Origin: Streptomyces buecherae
Lineage (GTDB): Bacteria > Actinomycetota > Actinomycetes > Streptomycetales > Streptomycetaceae
Direction of reading: 5' to 3'
Assembly: GCF_014295035.1 (NCBI RefSeq)
Contig: NZ_CP060404.1
Span: 1 to 64,000 of the forward strand
Length of the DNA: 64,000 nt
The notes under the pieces were generated by a model. The model saw only the letters and a list, made by a program, of their open reading frames with translations, did no database searches and was not told the DNA's origin. Numbering within the stretch: position 1 is the stretch's first letter; each line of letters starts with the position of its first letter. Made by a program: the position numbers and the translations under genes. This document shows, piece after piece, positions 10,600-64,000 of the stretch.

Positions 10600-10640
10600 G
10601 GTGAAACACTCCTTCACATACGGCAGGCGCGGCCCGCTCC

Positions 10641-18993: not shown

Positions 18994-18999
18994 GCGGCA

Positions 19000-48779: not shown

Positions 48780-49005
48780 GTCCTCTTGTGTGCCGTGGTC
48801 CGGTCGCCCCGGCACGCCGTGGCGGACCGCCGGCGGGGCCGGGTGGTGTCCCGTCGCCGTGGTCGCCGGCCCGCGGGGCCGGTGAGCTGGGGTCATTCGG
48901 GCGCCAGGACCGGTGAAACGGGGCCCCGCCCGTACAATCTGGTCCCGAACGACCGGAGGGGCCGTCGGGCCGTCCGGGTCCGTACCGGCGACATTGGGAG
49001 CACTC

Positions 49006-49578
49006 TTGCCCGGCCAGCGGTCCATCACAGAAGCGGAGAAGCTCGCGGAGGCGAAGCTGGGTGGGATACCCATCCGGCGGGAGCAGATGGTGGCCGTGGC
49101 CAACATCCACCGGGCTGCCTCCACCGTGCGGCACCACCTGGAGAACTCCGTGCTGCGCAGCTCGGACCTGACGTGGACGGCGTTCGTCGTGCTGTGGGTG
49201 GTGTGGGTCGGTGGCGAGTCGGAGACCCGGCACGTCGCGGAGGAGGCCGGCATCTCGAAGGGGACGCTGACCGGTGTCGCCCGCACCCTGGAGTCGCGCG
49301 GGCTGTTGCGCCGCGCCGGCCACCCCACCGACGGCCGGCTCGTGTTGCTGTCCGTGACGGAGCAGGGTGAGGAGTTCATGCGGCGCGTCTTCCCCGAGTT
49401 CAACGAGGAGGAGGTGTTCGTGACGTCGCAGTTGAGCGAGGCCGAGTGCCGCACGCTCGCGGACGGGTTGCGGCGCGTGGTCCTCCAGGTGGAGCAGCAC
49501 GGCGAGGAGCGCCGCAGGACACTGCTGAACGGGGCCGAGCCCGCGCCCCGGCGCAGCGGCCGACGCCCCAAGGGCTGA
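49006..49578 (+). CDS. MarR-family regulator (TTG start)
   Basis: A 190-residue winged-helix protein. SETRHVAEEAGISKGTLTGVARTLESRGLL (about 75-104) is the recognition unit and HPTDGRLVLLSVTEQG the wing (about 107-122). The TTG at 49006 follows GGGAG with five bases spacing; GTG/ATG alternatives upstream lack this. A TACAAT box at 48933-48938 may be the -10 element. It diverges from iclR and converges on the puuD-like gene 16 bases away, at the left edge of the catabolic island. Confidence 0.85.
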   Translation: MPGQRSITEAEKLAEAKLGGIPIRREQMVAVANIHRAASTVRHHLENSVLRSSDLTWTAFVVLWVVWVGGESETRHVAEEAGISKGTLTGVARTLESRGLLRRAGHPTDGRLVLLSVTEQGEEFMRRVFPEFNEEEVFVTSQLSEAECRTLADGLRRVVLQVEQHGEERRRTLLNGAEPAPRRSGRRPKG

Positions 49579-49594: not shown

Positions 49595-50344
49595 TCAGCG
49601 GTACGCGGACGCGGCGCGCACGAGCGCGTCGAACAGGCGTTGCTGGGCCGGGTCGGTGCGGGCGGTGTCCTCGGGGTGCCACTGCACGGCCAGGAACCAG
49701 CCGCCTCCCCCGGTCGCCTCGACGGCCTCGATCGTGCTGTCGGCGGCGCGCGCGGTGGCGGTCAGGCCCTCGCCCAGCCGATCGACGTGCTGGTGGTGGA
49801 AGCAGGACGCGTCGACGGTGGTGGCCCCGGTGACGAGCGCGACGGCGGACCCCGGGGTGAGGGAAACGGGGTGACGCATGTGCCGGTGTTCTCGGCCCGG
49901 TCCCCCCATGTCCTGGTGGAGGGTGCCGCCCAACGCCGTGTTGACGACCTGCAGACCGCGACAGACGGCCAACAGCGGCAGGCCCAACTCCCTTGTCTGG
50001 CGGGCTGCTTCGAGGTCGAAGGCGTCCTGTTCGTGGTCCACGTCGTACACCGCCTCGTGTGCCTCGTCGGCTCCGTAGCGGTGCGGTGAGAGGTCGCCGC
50101 CGCCGGGGAGGAGCACGCCGTCGAAGCGGGTGAGGCGGGCGGCGGTCTCGGCCGGGTCGCAGACGCCGGCGGGAGCGTGCGGGTGGATGGTGGCGGGTTC
50201 GCCGCCCGCCCGCCACACCGCCTCGACCAGCGCCCGGGCGTTGACCTCGGCGGCGTAGCGCAGCGCGGAGGTGGTGGCGGCGAAGCGGGCCGGGACGGCG
50301 ATCAGGGGCCGGTGAGCGCGGCGGCCGTCGCGGGCGCGGGTCAC
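49595..50344 (-). CDS. PuuD-like gamma-glutamyl amide hydrolase (peptidase C26)
   Basis: A 249-residue class I GATase-like hydrolase. VLLPGGGDLSPHRYG (about 75-89), the nucleophile elbow LLAVCRGLQVVNTALGG (about 128-144) and LAVQWHPED with the catalytic His-Glu (about 217-225) are present. In the putrescine (Puu) route it releases GABA from gamma-glutamyl-GABA; relatives in aniline catabolism act on gamma-glutamyl aromatic amines. GTG 50344 overlaps the stop of the upstream aldehyde dehydrogenase (GTGA), a puuC-puuD order seen in polyamine operons. The symbol is withheld because the substrate is uncertain. Confidence 0.88.
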   Translation of the reverse strand: MTRARDGRRAHRPLIAVPARFAATTSALRYAAEVNARALVEAVWRAGGEPATIHPHAPAGVCDPAETAARLTRFDGVLLPGGGDLSPHRYGADEAHEAVYDVDHEQDAFDLEAARQTRELGLPLLAVCRGLQVVNTALGGTLHQDMGGPGREHRHMRHPVSLTPGSAVALVTGATTVDASCFHHQHVDRLGEGLTATARAADSTIEAVEATGGGGWFLAVQWHPEDTARTDPAQQRLFDALVRAASAYR

Positions 50345-51825
50345 CACTGGATCCAGGTGGTCTTGAGTTCGGTGTACTTCTCCAGCGCGTGGGCGGACTT
50401 GTCGCGTCCGTTGCCGGACTGCTTCATGCCGCCGAAGGGCACCGTGAGGTCACCCTCCTCGTAGCAGTTGACCCAGACGGTGCCGGCGCGCAGGGCGCGC
50501 GAGACCTGGTGGGCCGTGGACAGGTTGGCGGTCCACACGCCGGCGGCCAGCCCGTAGTCGGTGGCGTTGGCCAGGGCCACCGCCTCGTCGAGGTCCTCGA
50601 AGGTGAAGACGGACAGCACGGGTCCGAAGACCTCGTCGCGCGCCAGTGCGGAGTCCGGGGCCACGCGGTCGAAGACGGTGGGTTGGAGGTAGGTGCCCCC
50701 GGTCTGGGTCAGGACGCGCTCGCCACCGGTACGCAGCCGGGCGCCGGTGTCGATGGCCGCGTGGACGTGGCCCAGCACCCGGTCCAGGTGGTCGCCGCTG
50801 ACCAGCGGGCCCATCGCGGTGGCGGGGTCGAGCGGGTCGCCGACGCGCAGGGCGCGGGCCCGGTCGATGACGGCCTGGGTGACACGTTCGGCGATGGAGG
50901 AGTGGACGAGCAGCCGGGAGGGGGCGGTGCACATCTCACCCTGGTTGAAGAAGATGCCCCAGGCGGCGGTGGCCGCGGCCTGCTCGAGGTCAGGAGCGTC
51001 GGGGAGGATGATGTTGGGTGACTTGCCGCCCAGTTCGAGCCAGACGCGCTTGAGGTTGGAGTCGGCGGCGTAGCGCAGGAAGTGGCGGCCCACGGCGGTG
51101 GAGCCGGTGAAGGCGAGGACGTCGACGTCGGGGTGGAGGCCGAGGGCGCGTCCGGCGACCGGGCCGCTGCCGCCGACCACGTTCAGGACGCCGGGCGGCA
51201 GGCCGGCCGCGCTGGCCACCCTGGCAAGCCGCAGGGCGGACAGGGGTGAGTTCTCCGCAGGCTTGAGGACGACCGTGCAGCCGGCGGCGAGGGCCGGGGC
51301 GACCTTCCAGCCGGCGAGCGTGAGGGGGAAGTTCCACGGCACGACGGCCCCCACGACGCCGGCCGGCTCACGGGTGACGAGGGCGAGGGCGTCGGGGGCG
51401 GTGTGCGGGGACTCGTCGGTGAGCTTGTCGGCCAGTTGGCCGTACCAACGGAAGGTGTTGATCAGGGCGCGTAGTTCGATGTCGTACGCGTCGGTGATGG
51501 GCTTGCCCATCTCCAGGCTCACGGTGAGGGCGAGGTCAGCCCGCTCGGCCTCGATGAGGTCGGCGACGCGCGACAGGAGCCGGCCGCGTTCGGCCGGGGC
51601 GAGCCGTGGCCACGGGCCGCTGTCGAAGGCCCGGCGGGCGGCGGCGACGGCCAGGTCCACCTCGGCCGCTCCCCCGTCGGCCACGTCGGCCAGCGGCCGG
51701 CCGTCCCGCGGCGACACCACGGTGAACGTGCCGCCTCCCGCGTGCGGGGAGCCGTCGATGTGGTGCGTCCCTGGCAGGTCGAGCGTCTGCGCGCGGCGTA
51801 TCCAGTCGTCGTGGGTGGCATCCAC
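50341..51825 (-). CDS. PuuC-like aldehyde dehydrogenase
   Basis: A 494-residue NAD(P)-dependent aldehyde dehydrogenase. Motifs: VVPWNFPL (about 161-168), FTGSTAVG (about 240-247), catalytic glutamate in LELGGKSPN (about 265-273) and catalytic cysteine in FNQGEMCTAPSR (about 293-304), with FGPV and the C-terminal GGMKQSGNGRDKS. The spacing of the last motif and length match gamma-glutamyl-gamma-aminobutyraldehyde dehydrogenases. GTG 51825 follows GAGGA. It is translationally coupled to the puuD-like hydrolase. Confidence 0.9.
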   Translation of the reverse strand: MDATHDDWIRRAQTLDLPGTHHIDGSPHAGGGTFTVVSPRDGRPLADVADGGAAEVDLAVAAARRAFDSGPWPRLAPAERGRLLSRVADLIEAERADLALTVSLEMGKPITDAYDIELRALINTFRWYGQLADKLTDESPHTAPDALALVTREPAGVVGAVVPWNFPLTLAGWKVAPALAAGCTVVLKPAENSPLSALRLARVASAAGLPPGVLNVVGGSGPVAGRALGLHPDVDVLAFTGSTAVGRHFLRYAADSNLKRVWLELGGKSPNIILPDAPDLEQAAATAAWGIFFNQGEMCTAPSRLLVHSSIAERVTQAVIDRARALRVGDPLDPATAMGPLVSGDHLDRVLGHVHAAIDTGARLRTGGERVLTQTGGTYLQPTVFDRVAPDSALARDEVFGPVLSVFTFEDLDEAVALANATDYGLAAGVWTANLSTAHQVSRALRAGTVWVNCYEEGDLTVPFGGMKQSGNGRDKSAHALEKYTELKTTWIQW

Positions 51826-52161
51826 CGTGGGTCCTCGTTTCGTGGAGAGTGCGCGGGAAGGGGGCGGGCCGTGCGTCGGGAGGCTGATGGCTTGGGCGGG
51901 CGCCGGCTTGGGCGGACGGCAGGCCGGTGCGTACGGCGCGCGCCGGCCTGGCCTGTGGCGTGCGCGGGCGGGGCCGGGTGCCTGGGTGGTTCGGGTGTGG
52001 GTGGTACGGGTGTGGGTGGTACGGGTGTGGGTGGTACGGGTGTGGGTGGTACGGGTGTGGGTGGCGGTGTGGAGCGGGCCGGTGCGGCGGCGTCGGGTAC
52101 AGGCACCCGGCCGGGTGGCCGGGGGACGCGTGGTGTGCAGGGTTGGCCGTGGCCGGGTGGG
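51826..52161. other. 336-base intergenic region with minisatellite
   Basis: Between the upstream tetR and the puuC-like gene, all leftward. No gene is supported. The middle is occupied by the 15-bp tandem array, which may separate transcription of puuC-puuD from the genes above. Confidence 0.5.
51984..52064. repeat. 15-bp tandem repeat array
   Basis: Five units of GGGTGGTACGGGTGT from 51984 to 52058 (the first has TTC for TAC) plus a partial sixth (GGGTGG). The unit is purine-rich on the plus strand and its G-runs could form quadruplexes. Copy number is likely to vary between strains. Confidence 0.9.
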
Positions 52162-52788
52162 TCAGCCTTCGGCTGGCTGGTCGGTGTCCTCGTCGCTCAG
52201 CCTGGCCAGCAGCGCTCGAAGCTCCGTCAGCGCCTCTTCGGTGACCTCTCGCTCGCCGAAGACGAGTTGGTGGAGCACGAGCCCTTCGAGCGCGGCGAAG
52301 ACCAGTCGAGACAGCCCCCGCTCCACCGGGCGGGCCAGGGCTCGGGAGAGTTCGCGCTGGGCGGCGTCGAAGTACTCCTCGTACAGGGCGCGCAACTGGG
52401 GCATCAGTTCCGGCCGTCGCCTGGCCTCCAGCAGCAGTTCGTACTGGAACGCCTGGACGTCCGGTCCCGAGGCCACCATCGCCCCGAGGTCGGCGGCGAA
52501 GTCCCGCGCCGTGCCGGTGCCGGTGTTGAGGGCGTTGACGCGGAGCGAGGAGCGGATGGCGTGGTTGACGGACTCCTCGATGAGCGCGTCGCGGGAGCCG
52601 AAGTGGTGGACGACGAGCCCGTGGGTGACGCCGGCCTCCTCGGCGACGGCCCGATACGTCAGCTTGCGCAGACCGCCGCGCGCCACCACGCGTACGGCCG
52701 CGTCCAGCAGGGCGGTCCGGCCCGTCCCGTAGTTCGTCACGCGCTTGCGGGAGCCGCACGCGTCGGCGGGTCGGACGGGGTCGCTCAT
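52162..52788 (-). CDS. TetR-family regulator within the catabolic island
   Basis: A 208-residue TetR protein with helix-turn-helix at about 22-68 (LLDAAVRVVARGGLRKLTYRAVAEEAGVTHGLVVHHFGSRDALIEE). The G-L-V-V-H-H-F-G pattern is seen in actinomycete TetR proteins near catabolic genes. ATG 52788 lies 28 bases after the HpaG-like gene stop, so it is probably co-transcribed with the meta-cleavage genes. It is a candidate to bind the GTTTG-N4-CAAAC operators near 58.5 kb. Confidence 0.9.
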   Translation of the reverse strand: MSDPVRPADACGSRKRVTNYGTGRTALLDAAVRVVARGGLRKLTYRAVAEEAGVTHGLVVHHFGSRDALIEESVNHAIRSSLRVNALNTGTGTARDFAADLGAMVASGPDVQAFQYELLLEARRRPELMPQLRALYEEYFDAAQRELSRALARPVERGLSRLVFAALEGLVLHQLVFGEREVTEEALTELRALLARLSDEDTDQPAEG

Positions 52789-52816
52789 GGCACCGACCCT
52801 ACCGGCGGCCGGCCGG

Positions 52817-53662
52817 TCAGCGCCGCGGCGGCCTGATGCCACGGAACTCCCAGTCCCCGCCGAGCGCGGTGGAGCGCACCTCCTCGGACTCGGTCGGCTG
52901 GGCCCCCACGTCGGTGCGGACGGCCGTGGGGCCGGTGACGATGTGGTTGGTGAGGCAGCCGAGTCCCTCGACCTCCACCTCGACGACGTCGCCGGGACGC
53001 ACCGGCCGGGAGTTGGCCGGGGTGCCGGAGAGCAGCACGTCGCCGGGGTACAGGGTGATGGTGCGGGCGATGTCGGCGACGAGGTAGTGCATGTCCCAGG
53101 TCATCTCGTCGGTGGAGCCGTCCTGGACGACCTGTCCGTTGACCCGGGTCCGCAGCCGCTTGTCGTGGAAGTCCCAGTCGGTGACCAGGCCGGGGCCGAG
53201 CGGGCACAGGGTGTCCGAACCCTTCACCCGCAGCATGGAGCCCGCGTCGGTGTCCCGGAAGTCGTGCAGGCCGTAGTCGTTGGCCACGGTGTAGCCGGCG
53301 ATGTGGTCGCCGGCCTGCGCCGGAGCGATGTTGCGGGCGGTCTTCCCGATGACGATGGCGACCTCGCCCTCGTAGTTGAGCCAGGTGCAACCCTCGGGCC
53401 GGACGACCGCGCCCCGGTGGCTGTTGAGCGCCGAGGTGGGCTTGTGGAAGTACGTGGGGGTGTCGGGCAGGTCGAGTTGGAACTCCTCCACCCGGCTGCG
53501 GTGGTTGAGGTGGACCGCGATCACCTTGGAGGGGGTGACCGGCGGGAGGTGGTGGGCGTCCTCGACGCTGACGCGGCGGCCGTCGCCGGCGATCAGTTCG
53601 TCGCCGTCGCGGACGGCCTGCACGGCTGCGCCGTCGAGGAGGATGCGGCGGTACTCGGGCAT
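52817..53662 (-). CDS. FAH-family hydrolase/decarboxylase (HpaG-like)
   Basis: A 281-residue fumarylacetoacetate hydrolase-fold protein. VIAVHLNHRSRVEEF, the metal-binding LNYEGEVAIVIGK, NDYGLHDFR and LYPGDVLLSGTPAN are characteristic of HpaG/HHDD isomerase-type enzymes, which decarboxylate or isomerise products of homoprotocatechuate meta cleavage. ATG 53662 follows AAAGG. It is third in the hpaE-hpaD-hpaG-like order. In HpaG of enterobacteria two such halves are fused; here there is one. Confidence 0.85.
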   Translation of the reverse strand: MPEYRRILLDGAAVQAVRDGDELIAGDGRRVSVEDAHHLPPVTPSKVIAVHLNHRSRVEEFQLDLPDTPTYFHKPTSALNSHRGAVVRPEGCTWLNYEGEVAIVIGKTARNIAPAQAGDHIAGYTVANDYGLHDFRDTDAGSMLRVKGSDTLCPLGPGLVTDWDFHDKRLRTRVNGQVVQDGSTDEMTWDMHYLVADIARTITLYPGDVLLSGTPANSRPVRPGDVVEVEVEGLGCLTNHIVTGPTAVRTDVGAQPTESEEVRSTALGGDWEFRGIRPPRR

Positions 53663-53676
53663 GGCGGGGGGCCTTT

Positions 53677-54603
53677 CTAGGCGGGGCGGGGTGCGGCGGG
53701 CGAGGCGGGTTGGCCGGTGCCGGTCCAGCCGTCGGCGGGGCGGTCGAACCAGAGGTGCACCTGTCCGGTGCCCACCGAGTTCTCGTACTCGCCGTACTGG
53801 CGTCCCCTGGCGGTGCACGCCCGCTCGCCGAGGGCGCCGGCCATCATCAGGTAGTGGAAGAACTTCGCCTCCGGCTTGACCTGCCAGAACGCGTCCATGG
53901 TGTCGATGACCCGGTCGTGGCGGCCCTGACTGAGCCAGTCGATGCGCTCCAGGTCGGCCGCCCGCGCCCGCGGCGAGAAGATGTGTACCGGGTCGCTGGC
54001 CTCGTGGTCGCGTAGTTCGCGCAGCGGCCAGAAGGTGTGGGAGAGGGCGCCGGAGGCGATCAGCAGGACGCGTCGGCCCGGGGTCGCGGCGATGCCGTCG
54101 GCCACCGCGCGGCCGAGGCGCAGGTGGTCCTCCATGTCGCCGGTCTGGCACACGCCGATGGACAGCCAGCGCTTGTGGGGCAGCCTTTCGCCGAGGAACT
54201 TCCACAGGTTGATCGTGGCGTAGTAGATCGGCAGGTGCACGTCCTCGATCGGGGTGATCCAGGTGCCGTGCTTGTCGGCGAACGAGGCGACGTGGTGGGC
54301 GAGTTCGGGGTCACCGGGGAAGTCGTACGGCATCCGGCACATGCCGCGCGGCAGCTCCTCGGAGGTGAACAGGCCGGCCCGACGGTGCTGGGCGGCCACC
54401 ACGAACTCGACGGTGGTGGCCCAGTGCGAGTCCAACACCAGGACGGTGTCGTAGTCGTCCCGCTCGAAGACGTCCCGGCGGAGCTGCTGGAGCCCGGTGA
54501 CGAGGGTGACCTCCTTACCCTCGTTGAGTTCGAGTCGGGTCTCCCGGGGGAGCACGATGGTGGGCACATGGGCGAGCAGGCCCGCCCCGACGATCTCACC
54601 CAT
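53677..54603 (-). CDS. Class III (LigB-type) extradiol dioxygenase, HpaD-like
   Basis: A 308-residue LigB-fold enzyme. The non-heme iron ligands are expected from AHVPT (His12), DSHW (His about 59) and the acidic residue around 240-245. SIGVCQTGD, LLIASGALSHTFWPL and MDAFWQVKPEAKFFHYLMMAGAL are characteristic of 3,4-dihydroxyphenylacetate 2,3-dioxygenases of this class. It would open the ring of homoprotocatechuate or a related catechol between C2 and C3. ATG 54603 overlaps the HpaE-like gene by eight bases and it is followed 14 bases later by the HpaG-like gene. Confidence 0.87.
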   Translation of the reverse strand: MGEIVGAGLLAHVPTIVLPRETRLELNEGKEVTLVTGLQQLRRDVFERDDYDTVLVLDSHWATTVEFVVAAQHRRAGLFTSEELPRGMCRMPYDFPGDPELAHHVASFADKHGTWITPIEDVHLPIYYATINLWKFLGERLPHKRWLSIGVCQTGDMEDHLRLGRAVADGIAATPGRRVLLIASGALSHTFWPLRELRDHEASDPVHIFSPRARAADLERIDWLSQGRHDRVIDTMDAFWQVKPEAKFFHYLMMAGALGERACTARGRQYGEYENSVGTGQVHLWFDRPADGWTGTGQPASPAAPRPA

Positions 54604-56059
54604 GGTCCTTCCAACCCTTCGGCGCGGTGACCGTGTTCTTGAGGTCGCAGTAGAAGTCGAAGCTCCAGGTGCCACCCTCGCGGCCAAGGCCGGAGTGGCG
54701 GGAGCCGCCGAAGGGTGCCTTGAGGTCGCGGACGAAGAAGCAGTTGACCCAGACGGTGCCGGCGACCAGGCGGGCGGTGACGCGTTCGGCGCGCTCGGGG
54801 TCGCCGGTGGCCAGCGTGGCGGCCAGGCCGAAGCGGGTGTCGTTGGCCAGGTGGACGGCCTCGTCCTCGCTGGTGAAGGTCTGCAGGGTCAGGACCGGGC
54901 CGAAGACCTCCTCCTGCACGATCTCGGAGTCCTGTCGCACGTCGGTCAGCAGCGTGGGCGCGTAGTACTGGCCCTCGCCCGGGTGCCCGCCGATGACGGC
55001 GCGGGCGCCGGCCGCCAGGGCCCGCCGTACGAAGCCGTCGATCTTGGCCACCTGGCGGGGGTGGATGGTGGGCCCGATGTCGGTGGACTCCTCCCGTGGG
55101 TCGCCCTGCCGCAACCGGGACGCCTTGGCGACGAAGCGGCGGGTGAACTCCTCGGCCACGGCCTCCTCCACCAGGAGGCGGGTGGCGGCCAGGCACACCT
55201 GGCCGGCGTTGTCGTACTGCTCGACGGCGAGATCGACGGCCAGGTCCAGGTCCGCGTCGGCGAAGACCAGCAGCGGTGACTTGCCGCCGAGTTCGAGGCT
55301 GAGCGGGGTGAGGTTCGCGGCTGCCGAGGCGGCGATGTGCTGGGCGGTGGGCACGGAGCCCGTGAAGCTGATGCGGCGCACGTCCGGGTGGCTGGTCAGG
55401 GCGTCGCCGACCTCCGAGCCGTAGCCCTGTACGACGTTGAGCACGCCCGCCGGCAGGCCGGCCTCGGCGGCGATGTCGGCGAGCAGCGAGGCGGTCAGCG
55501 GCGACCATTCGGCGGGCTTGAGCACGACCGTGTTGCCGGCGGCCAGGGCCGGGGCGACCTTCCAGGTCGCCAGCATCAGCGGCGCGTTCCAGGGGGTGAT
55601 CAGCACGCACGGGCCCGCCGGGTCCCAGGTGACGTGGTTGGTGTGGCCTCGGGTGGCGAAGTCCTCGTGCTCCAGGGTGAGCAGCCAGTCCGCGAAGAAG
55701 CGGAAGTTGTGGGCGACGCGCGGCATGACGCCGCGCCGGTGGGAGCGCAGCAGCGCGCCGTTGTCCACGGTTTCGACGTTGGCCAACTCTTCGGTGCGCT
55801 TCTCCACGCCGTCGGCGACGGCGTGCAGGAGGCGGGCGCGTTCGGCGCGCGGGGTGGCGGCCCAGCCGGGGAAGGCGGCCTTGGCGGCGGCCACGGCCGC
55901 GCGGGCCTCGGCGGCGGTGCCCCGGGAGATCTCCCCGATGGGGGCGCCGTCGATGGGTGAGGCGTCGGTGAAGGTCCGCGGGGAGGCGACCCGCTGGCCG
56001 CCGATCCAGTGCCGGGTGTCGACGGCGACCCCGGCGACGGTGGTGCGGTGTTCGCTCAT
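54596..56059 (-). CDS. 5-carboxymethyl-2-hydroxymuconate semialdehyde dehydrogenase-like (HpaE-like) ALDH
   Basis: A 487-residue aldehyde dehydrogenase with ITPWNAPLML (about 152-161), FTGSVPTAQ (about 228-236), LELGGKSPLLVF (about 252-263), catalytic cysteine in DNAGQVCLAATR (about 284-295), and the C-terminal FGGSRHSGLGREGG. The last motif and the N-terminal DTRHWIGGQ resemble HpaE enzymes, which oxidise the ring-cleavage semialdehyde produced by HpaD. ATG 56059 is the natural start. The overlap with the dioxygenase gene supports a paired function. Confidence 0.88.
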   Translation of the reverse strand: MSEHRTTVAGVAVDTRHWIGGQRVASPRTFTDASPIDGAPIGEISRGTAAEARAAVAAAKAAFPGWAATPRAERARLLHAVADGVEKRTEELANVETVDNGALLRSHRRGVMPRVAHNFRFFADWLLTLEHEDFATRGHTNHVTWDPAGPCVLITPWNAPLMLATWKVAPALAAGNTVVLKPAEWSPLTASLLADIAAEAGLPAGVLNVVQGYGSEVGDALTSHPDVRRISFTGSVPTAQHIAASAAANLTPLSLELGGKSPLLVFADADLDLAVDLAVEQYDNAGQVCLAATRLLVEEAVAEEFTRRFVAKASRLRQGDPREESTDIGPTIHPRQVAKIDGFVRRALAAGARAVIGGHPGEGQYYAPTLLTDVRQDSEIVQEEVFGPVLTLQTFTSEDEAVHLANDTRFGLAATLATGDPERAERVTARLVAGTVWVNCFFVRDLKAPFGGSRHSGLGREGGTWSFDFYCDLKNTVTAPKGWKDHG

Positions 56060-56105
56060 GGCCTGTGGCTCCTGACGGTCAGGGCGTGGGTGGGGCGGGG
56101 CGCGG

Positions 56106-56930
56106 TCACTGGGCGCCCGAGGTGTGGGATGCCAGGAGTCGGCCGCCGTCCCAGACCACCCCGACCTGCTGGTAGTAGGCGGCGATCGGCTCGTGGATCT
56201 CCAGGCGGGCCAGTTCCTCCGTGGGCGCGTCGAACAGTTCCAGCTCGGCCTCCCCCACCCAGGGCTGCCCGCCCTCGACGGCGGCGGCGCCGGACTCGAC
56301 CAACTCGTCCAGGGCCAGGCCGCCGCCCTTCTCGATGGAGGGCAGCCAGCGGTGGTGGGCCATGGGGTGGCCGTTGACGAACCCGTTCGTCGGGGAGGGT
56401 TCGCGCAGGGTGACGACGGCCTGGGCCAGGCGCCGGTCCGCGGCGGCCAGGGTGGCGCCGAACCGGGCGCCGGCCTCGATCCGCGGGGCGGGCCCGTAGG
56501 GGTGGGGGCGGGTCTGGTGGATGGAGCCGAGCTTCTTCGGGTAACCCTGGTGCAGCCCCCGGGCGATGGCGAAGTCCTTGTCGACCCAGATGTAGACGCA
56601 GCGGGTGTAGGTCCGCTCGCCGTACTTGCAGCGGACGACGGCGAACGCCTCCTTGTACTGGGCGAGCACCGGGTCGAGCAACTCCCGCCCCGAGGCGGCG
56701 CAGGACTGCCAGTCGGCCCAGATCAGCGCCACCGCGCCGGGGTCCTCGTCGGCGAGCTCCAGCGGCTGGGGCAGCAGTTCGCGCACCCGGGCGGGGTCGG
56801 TGCGGTACTCGACGGTCAGCAGGTCGCCCGAGTAGCGCCACGGCGGCGGGGGGATCAGCGACGCGTCGCCCGTCGCGGTCTTGGGGTGGAAGTATCCACG
56901 CACCCTGGTCACGGTCACTTGGCTCTCCAT
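56106..56930 (-). CDS. Acetoacetate decarboxylase-family protein
   Basis: A 274-residue member of the acetoacetate decarboxylase-like fold. YRTDPARVRELLPQPLE (about 41-57) and GYPKKLGSIHQTR (about 128-140) match conserved segments; the lysine pair in PKKLG corresponds to the Schiff-base lysine region of the family. Homologues act as decarboxylases, hydratases or aldolases. It lies between ferredoxin reductase and the HpaE-like gene, where HpaF/HpaH-type steps are needed, so it could fill one of those steps. ATG 56930 starts four bases after the upstream stop. Confidence 0.82.
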   Translation of the reverse strand: MESQVTVTRVRGYFHPKTATGDASLIPPPPWRYSGDLLTVEYRTDPARVRELLPQPLELADEDPGAVALIWADWQSCAASGRELLDPVLAQYKEAFAVVRCKYGERTYTRCVYIWVDKDFAIARGLHQGYPKKLGSIHQTRPHPYGPAPRIEAGARFGATLAAADRRLAQAVVTLREPSPTNGFVNGHPMAHHRWLPSIEKGGGLALDELVESGAAAVEGGQPWVGEAELELFDAPTEELARLEIHEPIAAYYQQVGVVWDGGRLLASHTSGAQ

Positions 56931-56934
56931 GGGG

Positions 56935-58194
56935 CTAGGTGGTCGGGGACTGCTGGAGGAGGTCGGCGCGGTGCCGGGCGGCGGCCGCCACGGCCGCCCG
57001 GCCCCCGAGGGCGACCACGCCGACCAGGCGGCCCTCGCGGTGGTAGCCGACGACGACGTCCGCGCCGGGCTCGCCGTACAGGACCCTGGCGTCCGCCGTG
57101 CCGAGGGCCGGGGCGCCGAAGGACTGCAACCGGAAGTCGTGCTGGTCGCTCCAGAAGGTCGGCAGCGGCGCGAAGGGCGCCAGCTCGCCGCCGACGCCCG
57201 CCCCGAAGTCGGCTCCGGTTCCGGCTTTGGTGTCGGCTCCGGCTCCGGCTCCGGCGAGGTGGGCGGTGAGCACCCTGGCGGCGTGCTTGGCGGTGTCGGT
57301 GGGGATCGACCAGTGCTCGACGCGGCGGGGCACGCCGTCGTAACGCAGGCCGGGGAAGCGGGCGACGTCGCCGACGGCGACCACGTCGGGTCGCCCGCCG
57401 ACGCGCAGGTGGGCGTCGGTGAGTACGCCGTCGGTCAGGTCGAGCCCGTTGCCGGCCAGCCACTCGGTGTTGGCGAGCGAGCCCACCGACTCCACCACCA
57501 CGTCCGCGGCCAGCGTCCGGCCGTCGTCCAGGCGTACGCCGGTGACGCGGTCTCGGCCGGCGAAGCCGGTCACGTGTCTGCCGAGGGCGAAGCGCACGCC
57601 GCGCCGTTCGTGGCGGACGCGTAGCTCCGTAGCGAGCGACTCACCCAGGGGGCCGAGCAGGGGCAGTGGCAGCGGGTCGACGACCGTGACGTCGGCCGCG
57701 CCGAGCGCGCTGACGGTGGCGGCAACCTCGCAGCCGATGAAGCCGGCCCCCACCACGACGACGCGCGCGCCCGGCTCGGCCAGTGCGGCGCGCAGCCGCC
57801 GCGCGTCGCCGAGGGTGCGCAGGGTGTGTCGGCCGACCGAGGGACCGGGGCAGGTCAGCCGGCGTGGGCGCGTGCCGGTCGCGATGACCAGCGCGCGGTA
57901 GGGCAGGGTGCGGCCGTCGACCAGGTCGACGGTGCGGCGGTCGAGGTCGGCTCGGACGGCCCGAGTGCCCAGCAGCCAGGTCGCGTCGGCCACGCTGGGG
58001 CGCGGTCGCAGGGTGAGGGAGGCCGAGGACGCCGTGCCGGCGAGGAACGCCTTGGACAACGGCGGTCGGTTGTACGGCGGGTGGGGCTCGTCCCCGACGA
58101 GGGTGATCGGCCCCTCCCAACCCGCGGCGCGCAGTTGCTCGGCGGCGCGCAGGCCGGCCAGGGACGCACCGACCACGACGATGGGGGCGCGCAC
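56935..58194 (-). CDS. NAD(P)H-dependent ferredoxin reductase
   Basis: A 419-residue FAD-dependent pyridine nucleotide-disulphide oxidoreductase of the putidaredoxin/rhodocoxin-reductase type. FAD fold VVVGASLAGLRAAEQLRAAG (about 5-24), PPYNRPPLSKAFLAG (about 39-53), NAD fold VVVGAGFIGCEVA (about 146-158), and VVAVGDVARFP near 270-280. GTG 58194 begins three bases after the ferredoxin stop. It should pass electrons from NAD(P)H to the ferredoxin for a P450, presumably the one at 60116. An Ala/Gly repeat (GAGAGADTKAGTGADFGAG) at about 315-335 is unusual. Confidence 0.92.
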   Translation of the reverse strand: MRAPIVVVGASLAGLRAAEQLRAAGWEGPITLVGDEPHPPYNRPPLSKAFLAGTASSASLTLRPRPSVADATWLLGTRAVRADLDRRTVDLVDGRTLPYRALVIATGTRPRRLTCPGPSVGRHTLRTLGDARRLRAALAEPGARVVVVGAGFIGCEVAATVSALGAADVTVVDPLPLPLLGPLGESLATELRVRHERRGVRFALGRHVTGFAGRDRVTGVRLDDGRTLAADVVVESVGSLANTEWLAGNGLDLTDGVLTDAHLRVGGRPDVVAVGDVARFPGLRYDGVPRRVEHWSIPTDTAKHAARVLTAHLAGAGAGADTKAGTGADFGAGVGGELAPFAPLPTFWSDQHDFRLQSFGAPALGTADARVLYGEPGADVVVGYHREGRLVGVVALGGRAAVAAAARHRADLLQQSPTT

Positions 58195-58197
58195 GGC

Positions 58198-58386
58198 TCA
58201 GTGCTCGATCCGGATGGCCTGCAGCGGGCACACGTCGGCCGCCTCCTCCACCGCGTCGCTCAGGGCGTCGTCGGGGTTGGACAGGTGGGTCAGGCGCCCG
58301 GCGTCATCGAAGCGGAAGACCTCGGGCGCGGCGAAGACGCACTGGCCGTGGTCCTGGCACTTGCTCATGTCGACGACGACCTTCAT
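58198..58386 (-). CDS. [3Fe-4S]-type P450 ferredoxin
   Basis: A 62-residue ferredoxin: CQDHGQC (Cys10, Cys16) with a third cysteine in DVCPLQAI (about 53), the pattern of Streptomyces P450 ferredoxins that carry a 3Fe-4S cluster, followed by the usual C-terminal AIRIE. ATG 58386 follows a full AGGAGG. It is the first gene of the leftward catabolic operon and is paired with the reductase downstream; it diverges from the ligase-P450 transcript. Confidence 0.95.
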   Translation of the reverse strand: MKVVVDMSKCQDHGQCVFAAPEVFRFDDAGRLTHLSNPDDALSDAVEEAADVCPLQAIRIEH

Positions 58387-58491
58387 GGCCAGTCCTCCTG
58401 TACGGGTACGTGAGGGGGCGTCGGAGGGGAGATGAGGGGCCCGACCGCGGAGGTCGGGCCCCAGCCAGCGGGACGGCGGGCACCGTAACTC

Positions 58492-58505
58492 GTTTGGCTT
58501 CAAAC
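58492..58505. promoter_or_regulatory. Operator copy 1, GTTTG-N4-CAAAC
   Basis: GTTTG-GCTT-CAAAC lies 106 bases upstream of the ferredoxin start. It is identical in arms and spacing to the copy at 58595-58608, which implies one regulator for both divergent transcripts. Confidence 0.75.
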
Positions 58506-58594
58506 AAGATAGGAAGCGGCCACCCCGGGGTCAAGAGCTATCCGGATGGATAAATTTCTGCCGCCAACCCCTTGCCGGCGGCCGGCGGCCTACC

Positions 58595-58608
58595 GTTTGA
58601 TGTCAAAC
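58595..58608. promoter_or_regulatory. Operator copy 2, GTTTG-N4-CAAAC
   Basis: GTTTG-ATGT-CAAAC, 132 bases upstream of the ligase start at 58741 and 103 bases from the first copy (58492). The shared flank CAAACAA also repeats. TetR-family binding is likely because TetR genes lie in and next to both transcripts. Confidence 0.75.
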
Positions 58609-58740
58609 AACAGCGCCTCCCGCGCACCGCGGTACGAGGCACGGCCCCTGGCATCCCCCTCCCCCCGGCCCACTCCCCCGGCCCTTCCCCGCGCGCCCCG
58701 CGGCGCTGGGAGGCGCCCCCCTTCCCCAGAGGAGACACCG

Positions 58741-60096
58741 GTGAGCGCATCCGACACCTCACCCGTCCACCGGCGCATGGAGCAGTTGGCCGCCGCCGGC
58801 ATCGACGTGGTCCGGGTGACCTATCCCGACCTCATCGGCACCGAACGGGCCCGGGACGTCCTCCTGGACCACCTCCCCTCGGCCTGCGACCACGGCCTGG
58901 CCTTCTGCCGCGCCGTCTACCACACCAGCCCACAGGGGGACACGGTCGACGTCGCCGGCGGCCTCGACGCCGGCCTGCCGGACATCCGCGTCACCCCCGA
59001 CCTGGACACCCTGACGGCGCTGCCCTGGGAACCCGGGGTCGCCACCTGCCTGGGCAACGTCACCGACCCGGCCACCGGGCTGCCCGCGCCGGAGTCACCG
59101 CGCGACCTGCTGCGCGCCGTCCTCGACCGGTGCGCCGAACACGGCCTGCGGCCCGTGGTGGGACCGGAGTTGGAGTACTTCCTGTGCGACGAGGCGCCCG
59201 ACCGGCCACAGGGTTGGCGCCGCTACAGCGACGCCGACGGCGTCGTCTACACGGCCGGGCTGCGCGCGGACCGGGACAACCACCTGCTGCGCACCCTGCG
59301 CCTGCTGCGCGACCTGGACATCGGCGTCAGCGGCGGCAACCACGAGTACGACGGCTCCCAGTTCGAGATCAACCTGACCCACGGCGACGCCGCGCGCGCC
59401 GCCGACCGCGCCTTCCGCTTCAAGTCCGCGATCAAGGAGCTGGCCCGCAAGGAGGGTCGCCTGGCCACCTTCATGGCCAAGCCCTTCAACGACGCCGGCG
59501 GCTCCGGCTTCCACCTCCACCTGTCCTGCGTGGACGCGGAGGGCGCGAACGTCTTCGCGGACCCCGCCGCACCGTACGGCCTCTCGGCCACCGCCCGGCA
59601 CGCGCTGGCGGGCGTCCTCGCGCACGCGCCGGCGCTCAGCGCCCTGGCCAACCCGACCGTCAACTCCTACAAGCGGATCGGGCCCGACACCCTGGCGCCC
59701 TGGCTGATCGACTGGGGCCTGGACAACCGCAGCGCCATGGTGCGCGTCCCACCCGAGCGCGGCGCCGGTTCCCGCCTCGAACTGCGCCTCGGCGACGCGA
59801 GCGCCAACCCGTACCTCCTGATCGCCGCCACCCTGGCCGCGGCCCTGCTCGGCATCCTGGCCCGCGAGGAGCCGCCGGCCCCGCTGGAGGGTTACGGCTA
59901 CGACGCCGCGCGGGCCGAGCCACTACCGGCCACCCTGTCCGCCGCCCTCGACGCGCTGGAGGCGGACACCGCGCTGACCGAGACGCTGGGCAAGGACTTC
60001 ACCGCGTCCTACCTCGCCTACAAGCGCGACGAGGTCACCCGCTTCCAGCGGCACGTCACCGACTGGGAGTTCACCGAGTACGCCTACCACCTGTGA
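58741..60096 (+). CDS. Glutamine synthetase-family gamma-glutamyl-amine ligase
   Basis: A 451-residue GS-fold enzyme. VVGPELEYFL (about 140-149), GGNHEYDGSQFEINL (about 198-212), FMAKPFNDAGGSGFHLHLS (about 243-261), NPTVNSYKRI (about 304-313) and RVPPERGAGSRLELRLGD (about 335-352) are the substrate, metal and ATP segments. The ammonium-site residues of true GlnA are altered, as in PuuA/GlnA3/GlnA4 ligases that glutamylate putrescine, ethanolamine or aromatic amines. GTG 58741 follows GAGGAGA. It precedes the P450 by 19 bases and, with the PuuC/PuuD-like genes, could run a gamma-glutamylated amine pathway. Confidence 0.9.
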   Translation: MSASDTSPVHRRMEQLAAAGIDVVRVTYPDLIGTERARDVLLDHLPSACDHGLAFCRAVYHTSPQGDTVDVAGGLDAGLPDIRVTPDLDTLTALPWEPGVATCLGNVTDPATGLPAPESPRDLLRAVLDRCAEHGLRPVVGPELEYFLCDEAPDRPQGWRRYSDADGVVYTAGLRADRDNHLLRTLRLLRDLDIGVSGGNHEYDGSQFEINLTHGDAARAADRAFRFKSAIKELARKEGRLATFMAKPFNDAGGSGFHLHLSCVDAEGANVFADPAAPYGLSATARHALAGVLAHAPALSALANPTVNSYKRIGPDTLAPWLIDWGLDNRSAMVRVPPERGAGSRLELRLGDASANPYLLIAATLAAALLGILAREEPPAPLEGYGYDAARAEPLPATLSAALDALEADTALTETLGKDFTASYLAYKRDEVTRFQRHVTDWEFTEYAYHL

Positions 60097-60115
60097 CACC
60101 GAGGAGGCGACAGCC

Positions 60116-61414
60116 ATGAGCCGCGTGCCACCCCCGCCCGCCACCACCGACGCCGCGCGCGAACCGATGCCCCTGGCCGAGGTGAACCTCGCCGACCTGG
60201 ACCGGTTCACCGATGGCGTCACACCCTGGCGGATGTTCCACACCCTGCGCCACCAGGACCCTGTCCACTGGCAGCCCGAGGACGCGCCGAACTCCGGCTT
60301 CTGGGCGGTGACCCGGCACGCCGACATCGCCCGCGTGGACCGCGACCCCGAGACGTTCACCTCCTCCAGGTTCGTCAACCTGGAGGAGGTCGACGACGAC
60401 CAGATCAGGCGGCGCGCCTCGCTGCTCGAACTCGACGGCCTGCGTCACCGGGCCCTGCGCGGGTTGCTCCAGCGCCAGTTCGGCGCGCGCGTCATCAGCG
60501 GCTACGCCGACTTCCTGCGCGGCCTGACCGCCACCACCCTGGACGCGGCCCTGGCCCGGGGCACCTTCGACTTCGTCGAGGAGGTGTCGGCTGACTTCCC
60601 CATCAACGTCCTCGCCCGCCTGCTCGACGTGCCGCCCGAGGACAACCAGCGGCTCATCGACTGGGGCAACCGCATCATCGGCCACACCGACCCGGACTAC
60701 GCCGACGTCCTCCTGGACAGCGCGGAAAGCGAGCGGTACCGCGACCTCCCCTTCCGCTCCCCCGCGTCGCTCGAGGTCTTCGCCTACGGGAGGGAGTTGG
60801 CGCGGCAGCGACGCGGTGGCGCGGGCACCGACCTGGTCTCCCGGCTGGTCAACGAGGTGCCCCGGGACGGCGTGCCGCTGTCCGACCGGGACTTCGACAA
60901 CTACTTCCTGCTGCTGGTCGTCGCCGGCAACGAGACCACCCGGCACACCATCAGCCACGCGATGCTGGCGCTCCTCCAGCACCCCGAGCAACTCGCCCGG
61001 CTGCGCGACGACCCCTCCCTCATCCCCACCGCGGTCGAGGAGTTCCTGCGCTGGGCCTCCCCCGTCTACCACTTCCGCCGCACCGCCACCCGCGACACCG
61101 AGCTGGGCGGCAAGCGCGTCCGGGCCGGCGAGAAGGTCGTCATGTGGTTCGCCTCCGGCAACCGCGACGAGGAGGTCTTCGGCGACCCGTACGCCTTCGA
61201 CGTGGCCCGCCGGGACAACGACCACCTCACCTTCGGCAAGGGCGGCCCGCACCTGTGTCTGGGCAACCAGTTGGCCCGCACCGAGATCCGCATCCTGTTC
61301 GAGGAGCTCGTCCCGCGCCTCGCCGACGCGCGCCTGGCCGGCGACGTGCCGCGGGTGCGGTCCAACTTCGTCAACGGCATCAAGCGCCTGCCCGTGACGG
61401 TCACCCTGGCCTGA
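60116..61414 (+). CDS. Cytochrome P450 of the catabolic island
   Basis: A 432-residue P450 with a canonical I-helix AGNETT (270-275), ExxR at E309-R312, and the heme loop FGKGGPHLCLG with Cys381. The N-terminal part (WRMFHTLRHQDPVHW...SGFWAVTRHADI) resembles CYP125/CYP124- and linalool-hydroxylase-like groups. It follows the ligase gene by 19 bases and ends at a strong terminator. Ferredoxin and reductase genes start the divergent operon, so a complete class I P450 system is present. It may oxidise the free or glutamylated amine; the substrate is unknown. Confidence 0.93.
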   Translation: MSRVPPPPATTDAAREPMPLAEVNLADLDRFTDGVTPWRMFHTLRHQDPVHWQPEDAPNSGFWAVTRHADIARVDRDPETFTSSRFVNLEEVDDDQIRRRASLLELDGLRHRALRGLLQRQFGARVISGYADFLRGLTATTLDAALARGTFDFVEEVSADFPINVLARLLDVPPEDNQRLIDWGNRIIGHTDPDYADVLLDSAESERYRDLPFRSPASLEVFAYGRELARQRRGGAGTDLVSRLVNEVPRDGVPLSDRDFDNYFLLLVVAGNETTRHTISHAMLALLQHPEQLARLRDDPSLIPTAVEEFLRWASPVYHFRRTATRDTELGGKRVRAGEKVVMWFASGNRDEEVFGDPYAFDVARRDNDHLTFGKGGPHLCLGNQLARTEIRILFEELVPRLADARLAGDVPRVRSNFVNGIKRLPVTVTLA

Positions 61415-61488: not shown

Positions 61489-61932
61489 TCAGTCAGCCGT
61501 CTGGTCGCCGGGCTCGACGCCGGCGCCCGCCGCCCCGGCCGTGTCGGAACGTTCCGGGTCGCGGCGGAAGAACGTCTTGCTGGCGATCAGCCACGCGCCG
61601 TCCTGGCGTACCAGCGAGAAGTGGTTGGTGAAGTCGTGGCCCTGGTAGCCGTACTCGTCGAGCACGGCCACCGCCACGTCGCCGCTGACCTCCACCGCGC
61701 GGATGCCGTACGTGTAGTCGCGGGACCACCTGGGGGCGTCCGCGTCGGCCGCGACGACCTCGCTGAACGCCTCGATCGGCGCGGAGACGAACTGCTCGCC
61801 GAGGTAGCCCCACATGTGCGCGTCCGCGCGGAAGGCGGCTCGCACGGCCTTCGGGTCGGCGGCGCGCACCGCCGACACGTACGCCTCCACCGCGGCCCGC
61901 ACGTCGTCGTGGGCTGTCTTGCGCTGACTCAT
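61489..61932 (-). CDS. NTF2-fold/SnoaL-like protein
   Basis: A 147-residue protein of the nuclear transport factor 2 superfamily: helix VRAAVEAYVSAVRAADPKAVRAAFRADAHMWGYLG and later strands AVAVLDEYGYQGHDFTNHFSLVRQDGAWLIASKTFFR. Relatives are small-molecule hydratases, isomerases or dehydratases, or of unknown function. An HFSLVRQDGAW strand is typical. It follows the rightmost aldehyde dehydrogenase on the same strand (51-base gap), so it is probably co-transcribed with it. The C-terminal 20 residues are disordered (Gly/Ala-rich). Confidence 0.82.
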   Translation of the reverse strand: MSQRKTAHDDVRAAVEAYVSAVRAADPKAVRAAFRADAHMWGYLGEQFVSAPIEAFSEVVAADADAPRWSRDYTYGIRAVEVSGDVAVAVLDEYGYQGHDFTNHFSLVRQDGAWLIASKTFFRRDPERSDTAGAAGAGVEPGDQTAD

Positions 61933-63489: not shown

Positions 63490-64000
63490 TCAGTCGGTGA
63501 TGTTGCGCATCAGCCGGTCGACATGGGCGCGGTGTTCGGGGATCAGCTCGCCGCTGGGGAACATCAGGCAGGTGACGTTGGCCCCGATGGACATGCTGAT
63601 GACCTCGCCGGCCAGCGCGGTCACGGTCGGCGCCTCGGGTGACTCGCCCCGGTCGCGCGCCTCGGCGATCCGCACCGCGAGCCGCCTGCGCCACTCCCTG
63701 AGGTGCTCGCGGTAGAGGGTGGCGAGTTCCTCGTTGGCCACCGAGTGCTCCCACAGGGAGAGCAGCACGCGGGCGGAGTCGATGCGGTACGTGTCCAGCG
63801 GCAGCGTCACCTCGATGTCGTGCCGCAGCGCCTCCTTCGGGTCGAGCGAGGGATCGCCGTCGTTGATCCGCTCGTTCATCTCCGCGAGCACGCTCTGGAA
63901 CGTGGCGGCCACGATGCTGTCCTTGCTGGGGAAGTAGCGCTTGAGCGCACCGTTGGCGAATCCCGCCTCAGCGACGATGCTCCTCATGGTCGCGGCCTCG
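63490..64000 (-). CDS. TetR-family regulator, N-terminus outside the window
   Basis: At least 170 residues are visible, reading leftward from the window edge. EAATMRSIVAEAGFANGALKRYFPSKDSIVAATFQSVL is the recognition part of a TetR helix-turn-helix, so only about 20-30 N-terminal residues are missing. The C-terminal domain ends SGELIPEHRAHVDRLMRNITD. The frame stays open to base 64000. It lies 57 bases upstream of the aldehyde dehydrogenase gene on the same strand, so it may be co-transcribed, and is another candidate regulator of the island. Confidence 0.9.
   Translation of the reverse strand, partial: EAATMRSIVAEAGFANGALKRYFPSKDSIVAATFQSVLAEMNERINDGDPSLDPKEALRHDIEVTLPLDTYRIDSARVLLSLWEHSVANEELATLYREHLREWRRRLAVRIAEARDRGESPEAPTVTALAGEVISMSIGANVTCLMFPSGELIPEHRAHVDRLMRNITD

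What the first reader, a model, noticed from the sequence alone, without database searches (positions are those of the whole stretch)
49595..61414. Hybrid pathway: gamma-glutamyl amine route plus P450 system plus catechol meta cleavage
GS-like ligase, P450, ferredoxin, reductase, acetoacetate-decarboxylase-like protein, HpaE/HpaD/HpaG-like enzymes, and PuuC/PuuD-like enzymes share one divergent regulatory region. Polyamine-type operons and homoprotocatechuate operons are each known, but joined to a P450 they suggest degradation of an aromatic amine (phenethylamine, tyramine, dopamine or an anilide type) through a glutamylated intermediate. HpaF-, HpaH- and HpaI-type genes are not in the window, so the decarboxylase-like protein or genes to the right must complete it.
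Basis: inference. Interest (0 to 1): 0.75.

Follow-up and report, generated by a model that had tools for sequence, protein, structure and literature searches.

The report
Glutamate-capped tyramine-to-GABA ring-cleavage pathway
A gene cluster found in the same form in dozens of Streptomyces species encodes a set of enzymes that is predicted to cap tyramine or dopamine with glutamate, cut the aromatic ring open while the cap is on, and release GABA; I found no description of such a route in the papers I could search.

Summary
PuuD-, PuuC-, HpaG-, HpaD- and HpaE-like genes, an acetoacetate-decarboxylase-family (ADC) gene, ferredoxin reductase, ferredoxin, a GS-like ligase and a P450 lie at 49595-61414. 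It is one unit: in 200 family genomes, all 22 with the dioxygenase ortholog also have the P450 ortholog; of 64 named loci with full flanks, 52 hold all nine core genes. A palindrome, GTTTGNNNNCAAAC, marks its promoters: 3 exact sites in the 8.4 Mb genome, 2 of them here. In rearranged relatives it sits at the new promoters too.

Best reading (inferred): the ligase caps tyramine/dopamine as the gamma-glutamyl amide; P450 makes the catechol where needed; dioxygenase, HpaE-like and HpaG-like enzymes process the capped ring; the ADC-family enzyme, as hydratase-aldolase, releases pyruvate and gamma-glutamyl-4-aminobutanal, the PuuC substrate; PuuD then gives GABA. This explains the missing PuuB, HpaH and HpaI. 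Support: a tyrosine-decarboxylase-like gene sits inside the operon in four relatives, and elsewhere under the same palindrome in three more. No step is tested at the bench. P450 is absent from some clusters, so the starting amine may vary.

The parts
48913..49578 (+). MarR-family regulator (candidate binder of the shared palindrome; inferred)
   Evidence: Pfam MarR 39.2 bits; ortholog in 46 of 64 full-flank named loci; kept in the decarboxylase-type clusters, where TetR is absent
49595..50347 (-). PuuD-like gamma-glutamyl hydrolase (Peptidase C26)
   Evidence: Pfam Peptidase_C26 159.9 bits; NCBIfam PRK11366 gamma-Glu-GABA hydrolase is the best match, 65.6 bits, below its cut-off 266; CRGLQ and QWHPE motifs seen in the sequence
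50341..51825 (-). PuuC-like aldehyde dehydrogenase
   Evidence: Aldedh 565.5 bits; best NCBIfam match PuuC 552 bits, cut-off 850
52162..52842 (-). TetR-family regulator
   Evidence: Pfam TetR_N, TetR_C_31; present in 57 of 64 full-flank named loci
52817..53662 (-). HpaG-like FAA-hydrolase-family protein (predicted isomerase/decarboxylase)
   Evidence: FAA_hydrolase 196.3 bits; best solved relative HpaG/HpcE isomerase/decarboxylase 1gtt, 238 bits with the family profile; start placed
53677..54603 (-). LigB-type extradiol dioxygenase (HpaD-like)
54596..56059 (-). HpaE-like semialdehyde dehydrogenase
   Evidence: Aldedh 539.6 bits; best NCBIfam HpaE 529 bits, cut-off 638
56106..56930 (-). Acetoacetate-decarboxylase-family protein (predicted hydratase-aldolase)
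   Evidence: ADC 190.7 bits; best relatives MppR (4jm3) and 4zbo/6eej, lysine motif Q-G-x-P-K shared
56935..58194 (-). Ferredoxin reductase (P450 partner)
   Evidence: Pyr_redox_2 198.8 bits
58198..58386 (-). Small ferredoxin, 62 aa (P450 partner)
   Evidence: Fer4_15/Fer4_13; start placed
58492..58505 (.). Palindrome GTTTGGCTTCAAAC (candidate operator 1)
58595..58608 (.). Palindrome GTTTGATGTCAAAC (candidate operator 2)
58741..60096 (+). GS-like gamma-glutamyl-amine ligase, 451 aa
   Evidence: Gln-synt_C 337.3 bits; ribosome-binding site plus start, GGAGACACCGGTGAGC, found at up to 2 mismatches in 77 of 85 divergent regions
60116..61414 (+). Cytochrome P450 (predicted ring hydroxylase)
   Evidence: p450 75.4 bits; heme-Cys (HLCLG), AGNETT and EEFLR motifs seen in the sequence (motif meaning recalled)
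61489..61932 (-). NTF2/SnoaL-like (lumazine-binding-like) protein, accessory, role unknown
   Evidence: occurs with the ABC-importer type of cluster
61984..63432 (-). Third aldehyde dehydrogenase, accessory
   Evidence: present in all 7 ABC-importer-type named loci
63490..63999 (-). Second TetR regulator (continues past the window end); followed to the right, outside the window, by a dipeptide-type ABC importer at chromosome 64.1-69.3 kb

Best explanation
The genes at 48.9-61.4 kb form one co-inherited unit marked by a shared promoter palindrome, and they are predicted to break down tyramine- or dopamine-type amines by capping the amine with glutamate, opening the ring while the cap is on, and releasing GABA. 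Inferred steps: (1) the GS-like ligase makes the gamma-glutamyl amide; (2) P450 with ferredoxin and reductase hydroxylates gamma-glutamyl-tyramine to gamma-glutamyl-dopamine (not needed where a catecholamine is the substrate); (3) the LigB-type dioxygenase cleaves the ring at the 2,3 position; (4) the HpaE-like enzyme oxidises the semialdehyde; (5) the HpaG-like enzyme decarboxylates and isomerises; (6) the ADC-family enzyme, as hydratase-aldolase, releases pyruvate and gamma-glutamyl-4-aminobutanal; (7) the PuuC-like enzyme oxidises it to gamma-glutamyl-GABA; (8) the PuuD-like enzyme frees GABA and returns the glutamate. The cap would stop the amino-aldehyde from cyclising, as in the Puu pathway (recalled). 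Shown: gene content, conservation, shared palindrome, family relationships and a closed atom balance. Inferred: substrate and each activity.
For: Co-inheritance: in 200 family genomes the dioxygenase ortholog (68% identity or more) is in 22, and all 22 have the P450 ortholog (76% or more); the P450 is without it in 2: G131, at a contig end, and G144, where the P450 is split. Of the 80 named loci fetched by the dioxygenase (the best 80 of 266), 64 have full flanks: 52 hold all nine core genes and 60 hold the core apart from P450/reductase. Palindrome: 2 of the 3 exact sites in the own 8.4 Mb genome, reversed-pattern control 0. In the 64 loci an exact copy occurs in 57 and a relaxed one somewhere in all 64; all 93 exact copies lie within 450 bp of a cluster gene's match start. 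By my tally, 30 of 40 exact sites in 18 cluster-holding genomes are in cluster or decarboxylase promoters (control pattern 7 in these 18); 5 cluster-less genomes hold 3 in all (control 1). In genera g2/g5 the modules are split and both HpaE|PuuC and ADC|GS promoters carry it. Decarboxylase: a PF00282 gene whose best NCBIfam matches are tyrosine decarboxylases and best solved relatives 6ebn/5hsi sits between the HpaG- and ADC-like genes in L116, L118, L124, L127. In G023, G031, G004 its 83-85% ortholog lies elsewhere with an exact palindrome 21-68 bp upstream of the match. Completeness: no HpaH/HpaI model match; no DAO hit in the cluster loci; GABA transaminase above cut-off in the genome. A two-carbon side chain yields exactly the PuuC substrate; formulas close.
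Against: No activity is tested. HpaD, HpaE, HpaG, PuuC and PuuD models all score below their equivalog cut-offs. P450, reductase and ferredoxin are missing from the cluster in 9 of the 80 named loci, truncated contigs not counted (L094, L109, L133, L151, L164, L116, L118, L124, L127), and no P450 ortholog at E <= 1e-90 exists elsewhere in 5 of the 8 such genomes that could be searched, so hydroxylation is not part of the core. The decarboxylase scores are weak (120 bits against a cut-off of 905), its close orthologs carry only generic names, 17 of 32 genomes searched have no match at E <= 1e-100, the own one among them, and 8 more distant relatives (67-79%) have no palindrome. The own genome holds a copper amine oxidase, so a classical tyramine oxidase route is possible. 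Three cluster-holding genomes of one genus (G117, G014, G111) have no exact palindrome. The P450 is nearest to CYP125/CYP124-type enzymes, known for aliphatic hydroxylation (recalled).
Confidence: 0.62

Rival explanations
1. Two ordinary modules side by side: a homoprotocatechuate (4-hydroxyphenylacetate) meta-cleavage operon and a polyamine or ethanolamine gamma-glutamylation operon that merely share a promoter region.
For: The best family names are HpaD/E/G and PuuC/D.
Against: Nine-gene co-inheritance; same palindrome on both modules where they are split; no HpaH/HpaI model match in the genome; no DAO (PuuB-type) hit in the cluster loci; a separate GS + ALDH + permease + PuuD-like locus at 1.256-1.263 Mb may already serve polyamines or ethanolamine (inference).
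Confidence: 0.12
2. Same logic but a different aryl-ethylamine: for example 3-methoxytyramine or a methoxyphenethylamine (P450 as O-demethylase), octopamine/noradrenaline, or a peptide/amide-bound amine brought in by the ABC importer.
For: P450 is optional and some clusters carry a second P450 (6 of 80 named loci); importers are swapped: amino-acid permease in 50, ABC importer in 7, both in 0 of 64.
Against: The decarboxylase in the regulon of some relatives is nearest to tyrosine decarboxylases, which points to tyramine/dopamine.
Confidence: 0.18
3. The ADC-family protein only decarboxylates, and the ring-fission product is finished by unrelated enzymes elsewhere; PuuC/PuuD serve another aldehyde.
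For: Family name. Only the HpaH and HpaI models were searched in the genome; other hydratases and aldolases were not.
Against: Its closest solved relatives are MppR and the 4zbo/6eej protein, not the classical decarboxylases, which match only at 22-25 bits. MppR condenses pyruvate with an aldehyde, per the passages of PMC7820114, whose authors suggest a possible role of two ADC-superfamily proteins as aldolases in phenol breakdown.
Confidence: 0.08

Closest known systems
Puu (gamma-glutamylated putrescine) pathway, PuuA-PuuB-PuuC-PuuD (recalled)
   Same: GS-like ligase caps an amine; PuuC-like and PuuD-like enzymes would end with gamma-Glu-GABA to GABA + Glu.
   Different: No PuuB-type oxidase hit in the cluster loci; the aldehyde would come from ring cleavage and retro-aldol, not from amine oxidation; substrate predicted aromatic.
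Homoprotocatechuate (Hpa) meta-cleavage pathway; the P. putida U tyramine/dopamine catabolon (Arcos 2010, seen only as a citation in PMC10606097)
   Same: 2,3-dioxygenase, semialdehyde dehydrogenase and isomerase/decarboxylase types.
   Different: In the classical route the amine is first oxidised away to 4-hydroxy- or 3,4-dihydroxyphenylacetate, and HpaH + HpaI finish (recalled). Here the amine would stay on as a glutamyl amide and one ADC-family protein would replace HpaH + HpaI.
GS-like ligase + P450 + ferredoxin clusters for cyclic amines (pipA/morA type)
   Same: P450 with ferredoxin in an amine pathway; in G. molinativorax GS genes bear the locus numbers next to the bioI and pipA P450s (PMC9477822 passages).
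   Different: Aliphatic N-heterocycle substrates; no ring-cleavage, HpaE/G or ADC genes named in the passages seen.
gamma-Glutamylanilide route of aniline degradation (TdnQ/AtdA1; recalled)
   Same: GS-like glutamylation of an aromatic amine before ring oxidation.
   Different: The glutamyl group is lost at the dioxygenase step and a free catechol is cleaved (recalled); here the cap is predicted to stay on through ring cleavage.
MppR / 4zbo-type ADC superfamily aldolases
   Same: Sequence family and lysine motif.
   Different: Predicted to run in the breakdown direction, in a catabolic operon.

Membership tests
Puu gamma-glutamylation pathway | GS-like gamma-glutamylputrescine synthetase (NF045547 above cut-off) | tested here: not met
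   268 bits against cut-off 650; the GS family itself is clear
Puu gamma-glutamylation pathway | PuuB-type FAD oxidase present in the cluster | tested here: not met
   no hit in the cluster loci with one DAO-family query at E <= 1e-5
Puu gamma-glutamylation pathway | PuuC dehydrogenase and PuuD hydrolase above equivalog cut-offs | tested here: not met
   PuuC 552 of 850, PuuD 65.6 of 266, though each is the best match of its protein
Homoprotocatechuate (Hpa) pathway | HpaD, HpaE, HpaG above equivalog cut-offs | tested here: not met
   117 of 316; 529 of 638; 203 of 276
Homoprotocatechuate (Hpa) pathway | HpaH hydratase and HpaI aldolase in the genome | tested here: not met
   no match at E <= 0.001 to TIGR02312 or TIGR02311; in the same calls the models rang in 1 and 4 of 14 control genomes, none over cut-off
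LigB-type (class III) extradiol dioxygenases | LigB domain and fold | tested here: met
HpcE/HpaG isomerase-decarboxylase (FAH) family | FAA_hydrolase domain closest to HpcE/HpaG | tested here: met
   1gtt best, 238 bits; YExE and ND motifs shared (motif meaning recalled)
ADC-superfamily pyruvate aldolases (MppR-like) | ADC sequence family with Schiff-base lysine; closer to MppR than to true decarboxylases | tested here: met
   4jm3 172.8 bits, 4zbo 170.7, classical ADC 22-23 bits; lysine pair after GYP invariant in 14 sequences; NCBIfam MppR equivalog cut-off itself not reached, 176 of 380
ADC-superfamily pyruvate aldolases (MppR-like) | hydratase-aldolase activity | not testable with these tools
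   needs enzyme assay
Tyrosine/aromatic amino acid decarboxylase (relatives' cluster gene) | tyrosine decarboxylase equivalog cut-off | tested here: not met
   TIGR03811 120 of 905, TIGR03812 119 of 299, but these are the two best matches; best solved relatives 6ebn/5hsi

The most novel reading that the evidence does not exclude
A new aromatic-amine catabolic route: tyramine/dopamine is kept as its gamma-glutamyl amide from the first step to the last, the ring is cleaved on the capped molecule, an ADC-family hydratase-aldolase does the work of HpaH and HpaI in one protein, and the nitrogen leaves as GABA. It turns an arylethylamine into GABA, pyruvate and CO2 and is switched by one palindrome-bound regulator.
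Probability: 0.58. Interest if true: 0.82.

Novelty: new variant of a known kind. Interest (0 to 1): 0.72.

Why it matters
If right, it links two textbook pathways through one shared intermediate and assigns roles to enzymes that databases now label as homoprotocatechuate or catechol enzymes: nearly all of the named entries among the 120 listed dioxygenase relatives, from Streptomyces and some other actinobacteria, are called 3,4-dihydroxyphenylacetate 2,3-dioxygenase or catechol 1,2-dioxygenase (gene context outside Streptomycetaceae not checked). It would give the ADC superfamily a catabolic hydratase-aldolase, and predict that many Streptomyces convert tyramine or dopamine to GABA. Every step has a defined substrate and product, so it can be tested enzyme by enzyme.

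Tried and rejected
Anilide-type substrate: rejected because ring cleavage of an anilide would not give the PuuC/PuuD substrates (inference). Genes to the right completing Hpa: rejected. P450 as a core step: weakened, since it is absent from the cluster in 9 of 80 named loci. TetR as the palindrome binder: less likely, since TetR is missing from the decarboxylase-type clusters that still carry relaxed palindromes, but not excluded; MarR was not found within the flanks of 18 of 64 loci, which counts against it in turn. Sister clusters L086/L087 (P450 57-58%, GS 33-36%, PuuD 48-50%, no dioxygenase hit) show the same P450 type with another GS/PuuD set; they gave no substrate. The more distant dioxygenase of G142 (54%, L084) lies among HpaB, Asn-synthase-like and TauD genes and was set aside. 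Of the 17 decarboxylase matches, the 4 in-operon ones, the 3 with a palindrome and 8 without were looked at; two at 46% (G004, G031) were not. GS residues: the residue aligned with the flap Glu of authentic GS is not Glu (role of that Glu recalled); suggestive only. Literature: searches listed no paper on gamma-glutamyl-tyramine or -dopamine catabolism in bacteria (listings seen; passages seen in PMC7820114, PMC9477822, PMC10606097, and one reference-list entry in PMC8967917); subscription journals are not held, so a published description is possible. The activity of the 4zbo/6eej protein was not read.


Full report
What is there. The window is the first 64 kb of a single 8.4 Mb contig; the closest named relative holds the cluster about 44-65 kb from both chromosome ends (Streptomyces philanthi bv. 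triangulum 23Af2, L092/L093). Better starts were placed for the ligase (58741), ferredoxin (58386), HpaG-like protein (53662) and dioxygenase (54603). Two regulators (MarR 48913-49578, TetR 52162-52842) belong to the neighbourhood.

It is one unit. In 200 genomes of the family the dioxygenase has a 68-100% ortholog in 22 and the P450 a 76-100% ortholog in 23, plus one split copy in G144; all 22 dioxygenase genomes have the P450 (a 54% dioxygenase in G142 was not counted as an ortholog). A scan of named genomes with the dioxygenase found 266 relatives and kept the best 80 loci, two of them from one genome; of the 64 with full 10 kb flanks, 52 hold all nine core genes and 60 hold the core if P450 and reductase are left out. 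These are the closest relatives, so the figures do not speak for the 186 not kept. In two other genera the order is broken up and rebuilt, yet the same genes stay together (L078-L083). Some unnamed and named loci are the same strain, so counts of the two sets must not be added.

One switch. The divergent promoter holds two exact copies of GTTTGNNNNCAAAC (2 matches at up to 1 mismatch in the window, 0.44 expected, 11 of 100 shuffles reach 2, so the window alone proves little). The whole genome has three exact sites and none of the reversed control; the third is at 95385, at the start of an amidohydrolase gene. In the 64 full-flank named loci the exact palindrome is found in 57 and the relaxed one (TTTGNNNNCAAA) somewhere in all 64; all 93 exact copies are within 450 bp of the match start of a cluster gene. 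These loci are related, so conservation alone is weak. The stronger evidence is that the palindrome sits at new promoters when genes move: in both HpaE|PuuC and ADC|GS promoters of the rearranged genera, upstream of PuuC in some loci, and at an unlinked decarboxylase gene. Genome-wide, by my tally against the cluster coordinates, 30 of 40 exact sites in 18 cluster-holding genomes are in cluster or decarboxylase promoters and 10 are elsewhere; the reversed control gives 7 in these 18. Three of the 18 genomes have no exact site. Five cluster-less genomes have 3 sites together (control 1).

The decarboxylase clue. In L116, L118, L124 and L127 a PF00282 decarboxylase gene stands between the HpaG-like and the ADC gene of the same operon (Pfam on the L127 copy; the others 92-94% identical). 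Its best NCBIfam matches are the two tyrosine decarboxylase models and its best solved relatives are 6ebn and 5hsi, all weak and below cut-off. Relaxed palindromes lie at GS|MarR and upstream of the HpaE gene in these four clusters. In G023, G031 and G004 its 83-85% ortholog lies on another contig than the cluster but has an exact palindrome 21-68 bp upstream of the match; in G023 a MarR gene is next door. Eight more distant relatives (67-79%) have no palindrome, and 17 of 32 genomes searched have no match at E <= 1e-100. This ties a predicted aromatic-amine-forming enzyme to the regulon in seven genomes. The own genome lacks this ortholog, but the window has another decarboxylase, among whose best solved relatives are DOPA and aromatic amino acid decarboxylases, at 17397-18857.

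What does not fit easily. P450 and its partners are missing from nine of the 80 named clusters, and no P450 ortholog was found in the whole genome in five of the eight of these that could be searched. Hydroxylation is then a front-end option: such strains would start from a catecholamine or use another hydroxylase. The P450 is nearest to CYP125/CYP124 types. The genome has a copper amine oxidase, so a classical tyramine route may coexist. Specific family models are all below cut-off, as expected for changed substrates but also for a wrong guess.

Transport. Clusters carry either an amino-acid permease (50 of 64) or a dipeptide-type ABC importer with a third ALDH (7 of 64), never both; 7 show neither. 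The window is of the second kind; the importer lies just outside it at 64.1-69.3 kb.

Verdict. A real, conserved, co-marked pathway; the most likely function is glutamate-capped catabolism of tyramine/dopamine to GABA. It is a new variant built from known enzyme families; the paper searches made list nothing that describes it. Confidence in the substrate class about 0.6.

Noticed in passing
window 13907-20037: Peptidase_C26 (PuuD-like), GNAT, FAD-dependent oxidoreductase, DOPA/aromatic-amino-acid-decarboxylase-like gene and EamA transporter in a row, same strand: possibly a second gamma-glutamyl/arylamine locus on the same chromosome arm.
   Followed up: partly
window 9391-11622: Cyclodipeptide synthase next to a cytochrome P450: a likely cyclodipeptide natural-product pair.
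   Followed up: no
L092, L093: S. philanthi bv. triangulum carries the whole cluster near both ends of its chromosome, as if inside terminal inverted repeats; the own genome has one copy of its P450.
   Followed up: no
L086, L087: Sister clusters with a 57-58% P450, GS, a GATase and a PuuD-like protein, class III aminotransferase, acyl-CoA dehydrogenase, ALDH and APC permease but no dioxygenase hit: another likely gamma-glutamyl-amine P450 pathway.
   Followed up: partly
L237 6342, L238 5914: In genus g5 an exact palindrome also lies beside a FAD oxidoreductase (DAO), an ALDH-like frame and an amino-acid permease, as if a PuuB-type set shared the regulator.
   Followed up: no
L183 7385 (chromosome 95385): Third exact palindrome of the own genome, at the start of an Amidohydro_3 gene; meaning unknown.
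   Followed up: no
L157 12720-13916 and 5 other named loci: A second, different P450 (about 27% identical) between TetR and the permease in 6 of 80 named loci, with a ferredoxin-like hit beside it in several.
   Followed up: no
window 51826-52161: Where most relatives have the amino-acid permease gene the window has only a short gap with a repeated stretch (visible as VRVWV repeats in the ORF translations).
   Followed up: no
L085: G144 keeps only the ligase and a split P450 of the cluster, with no dioxygenase: a decaying copy.
   Followed up: no
L084: A 54% dioxygenase relative sits among HpaB-type hydroxylase, asparagine-synthase-like, TauD-like and PLP genes: perhaps a natural-product cluster using L-DOPA-type ring cleavage.
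   Followed up: no
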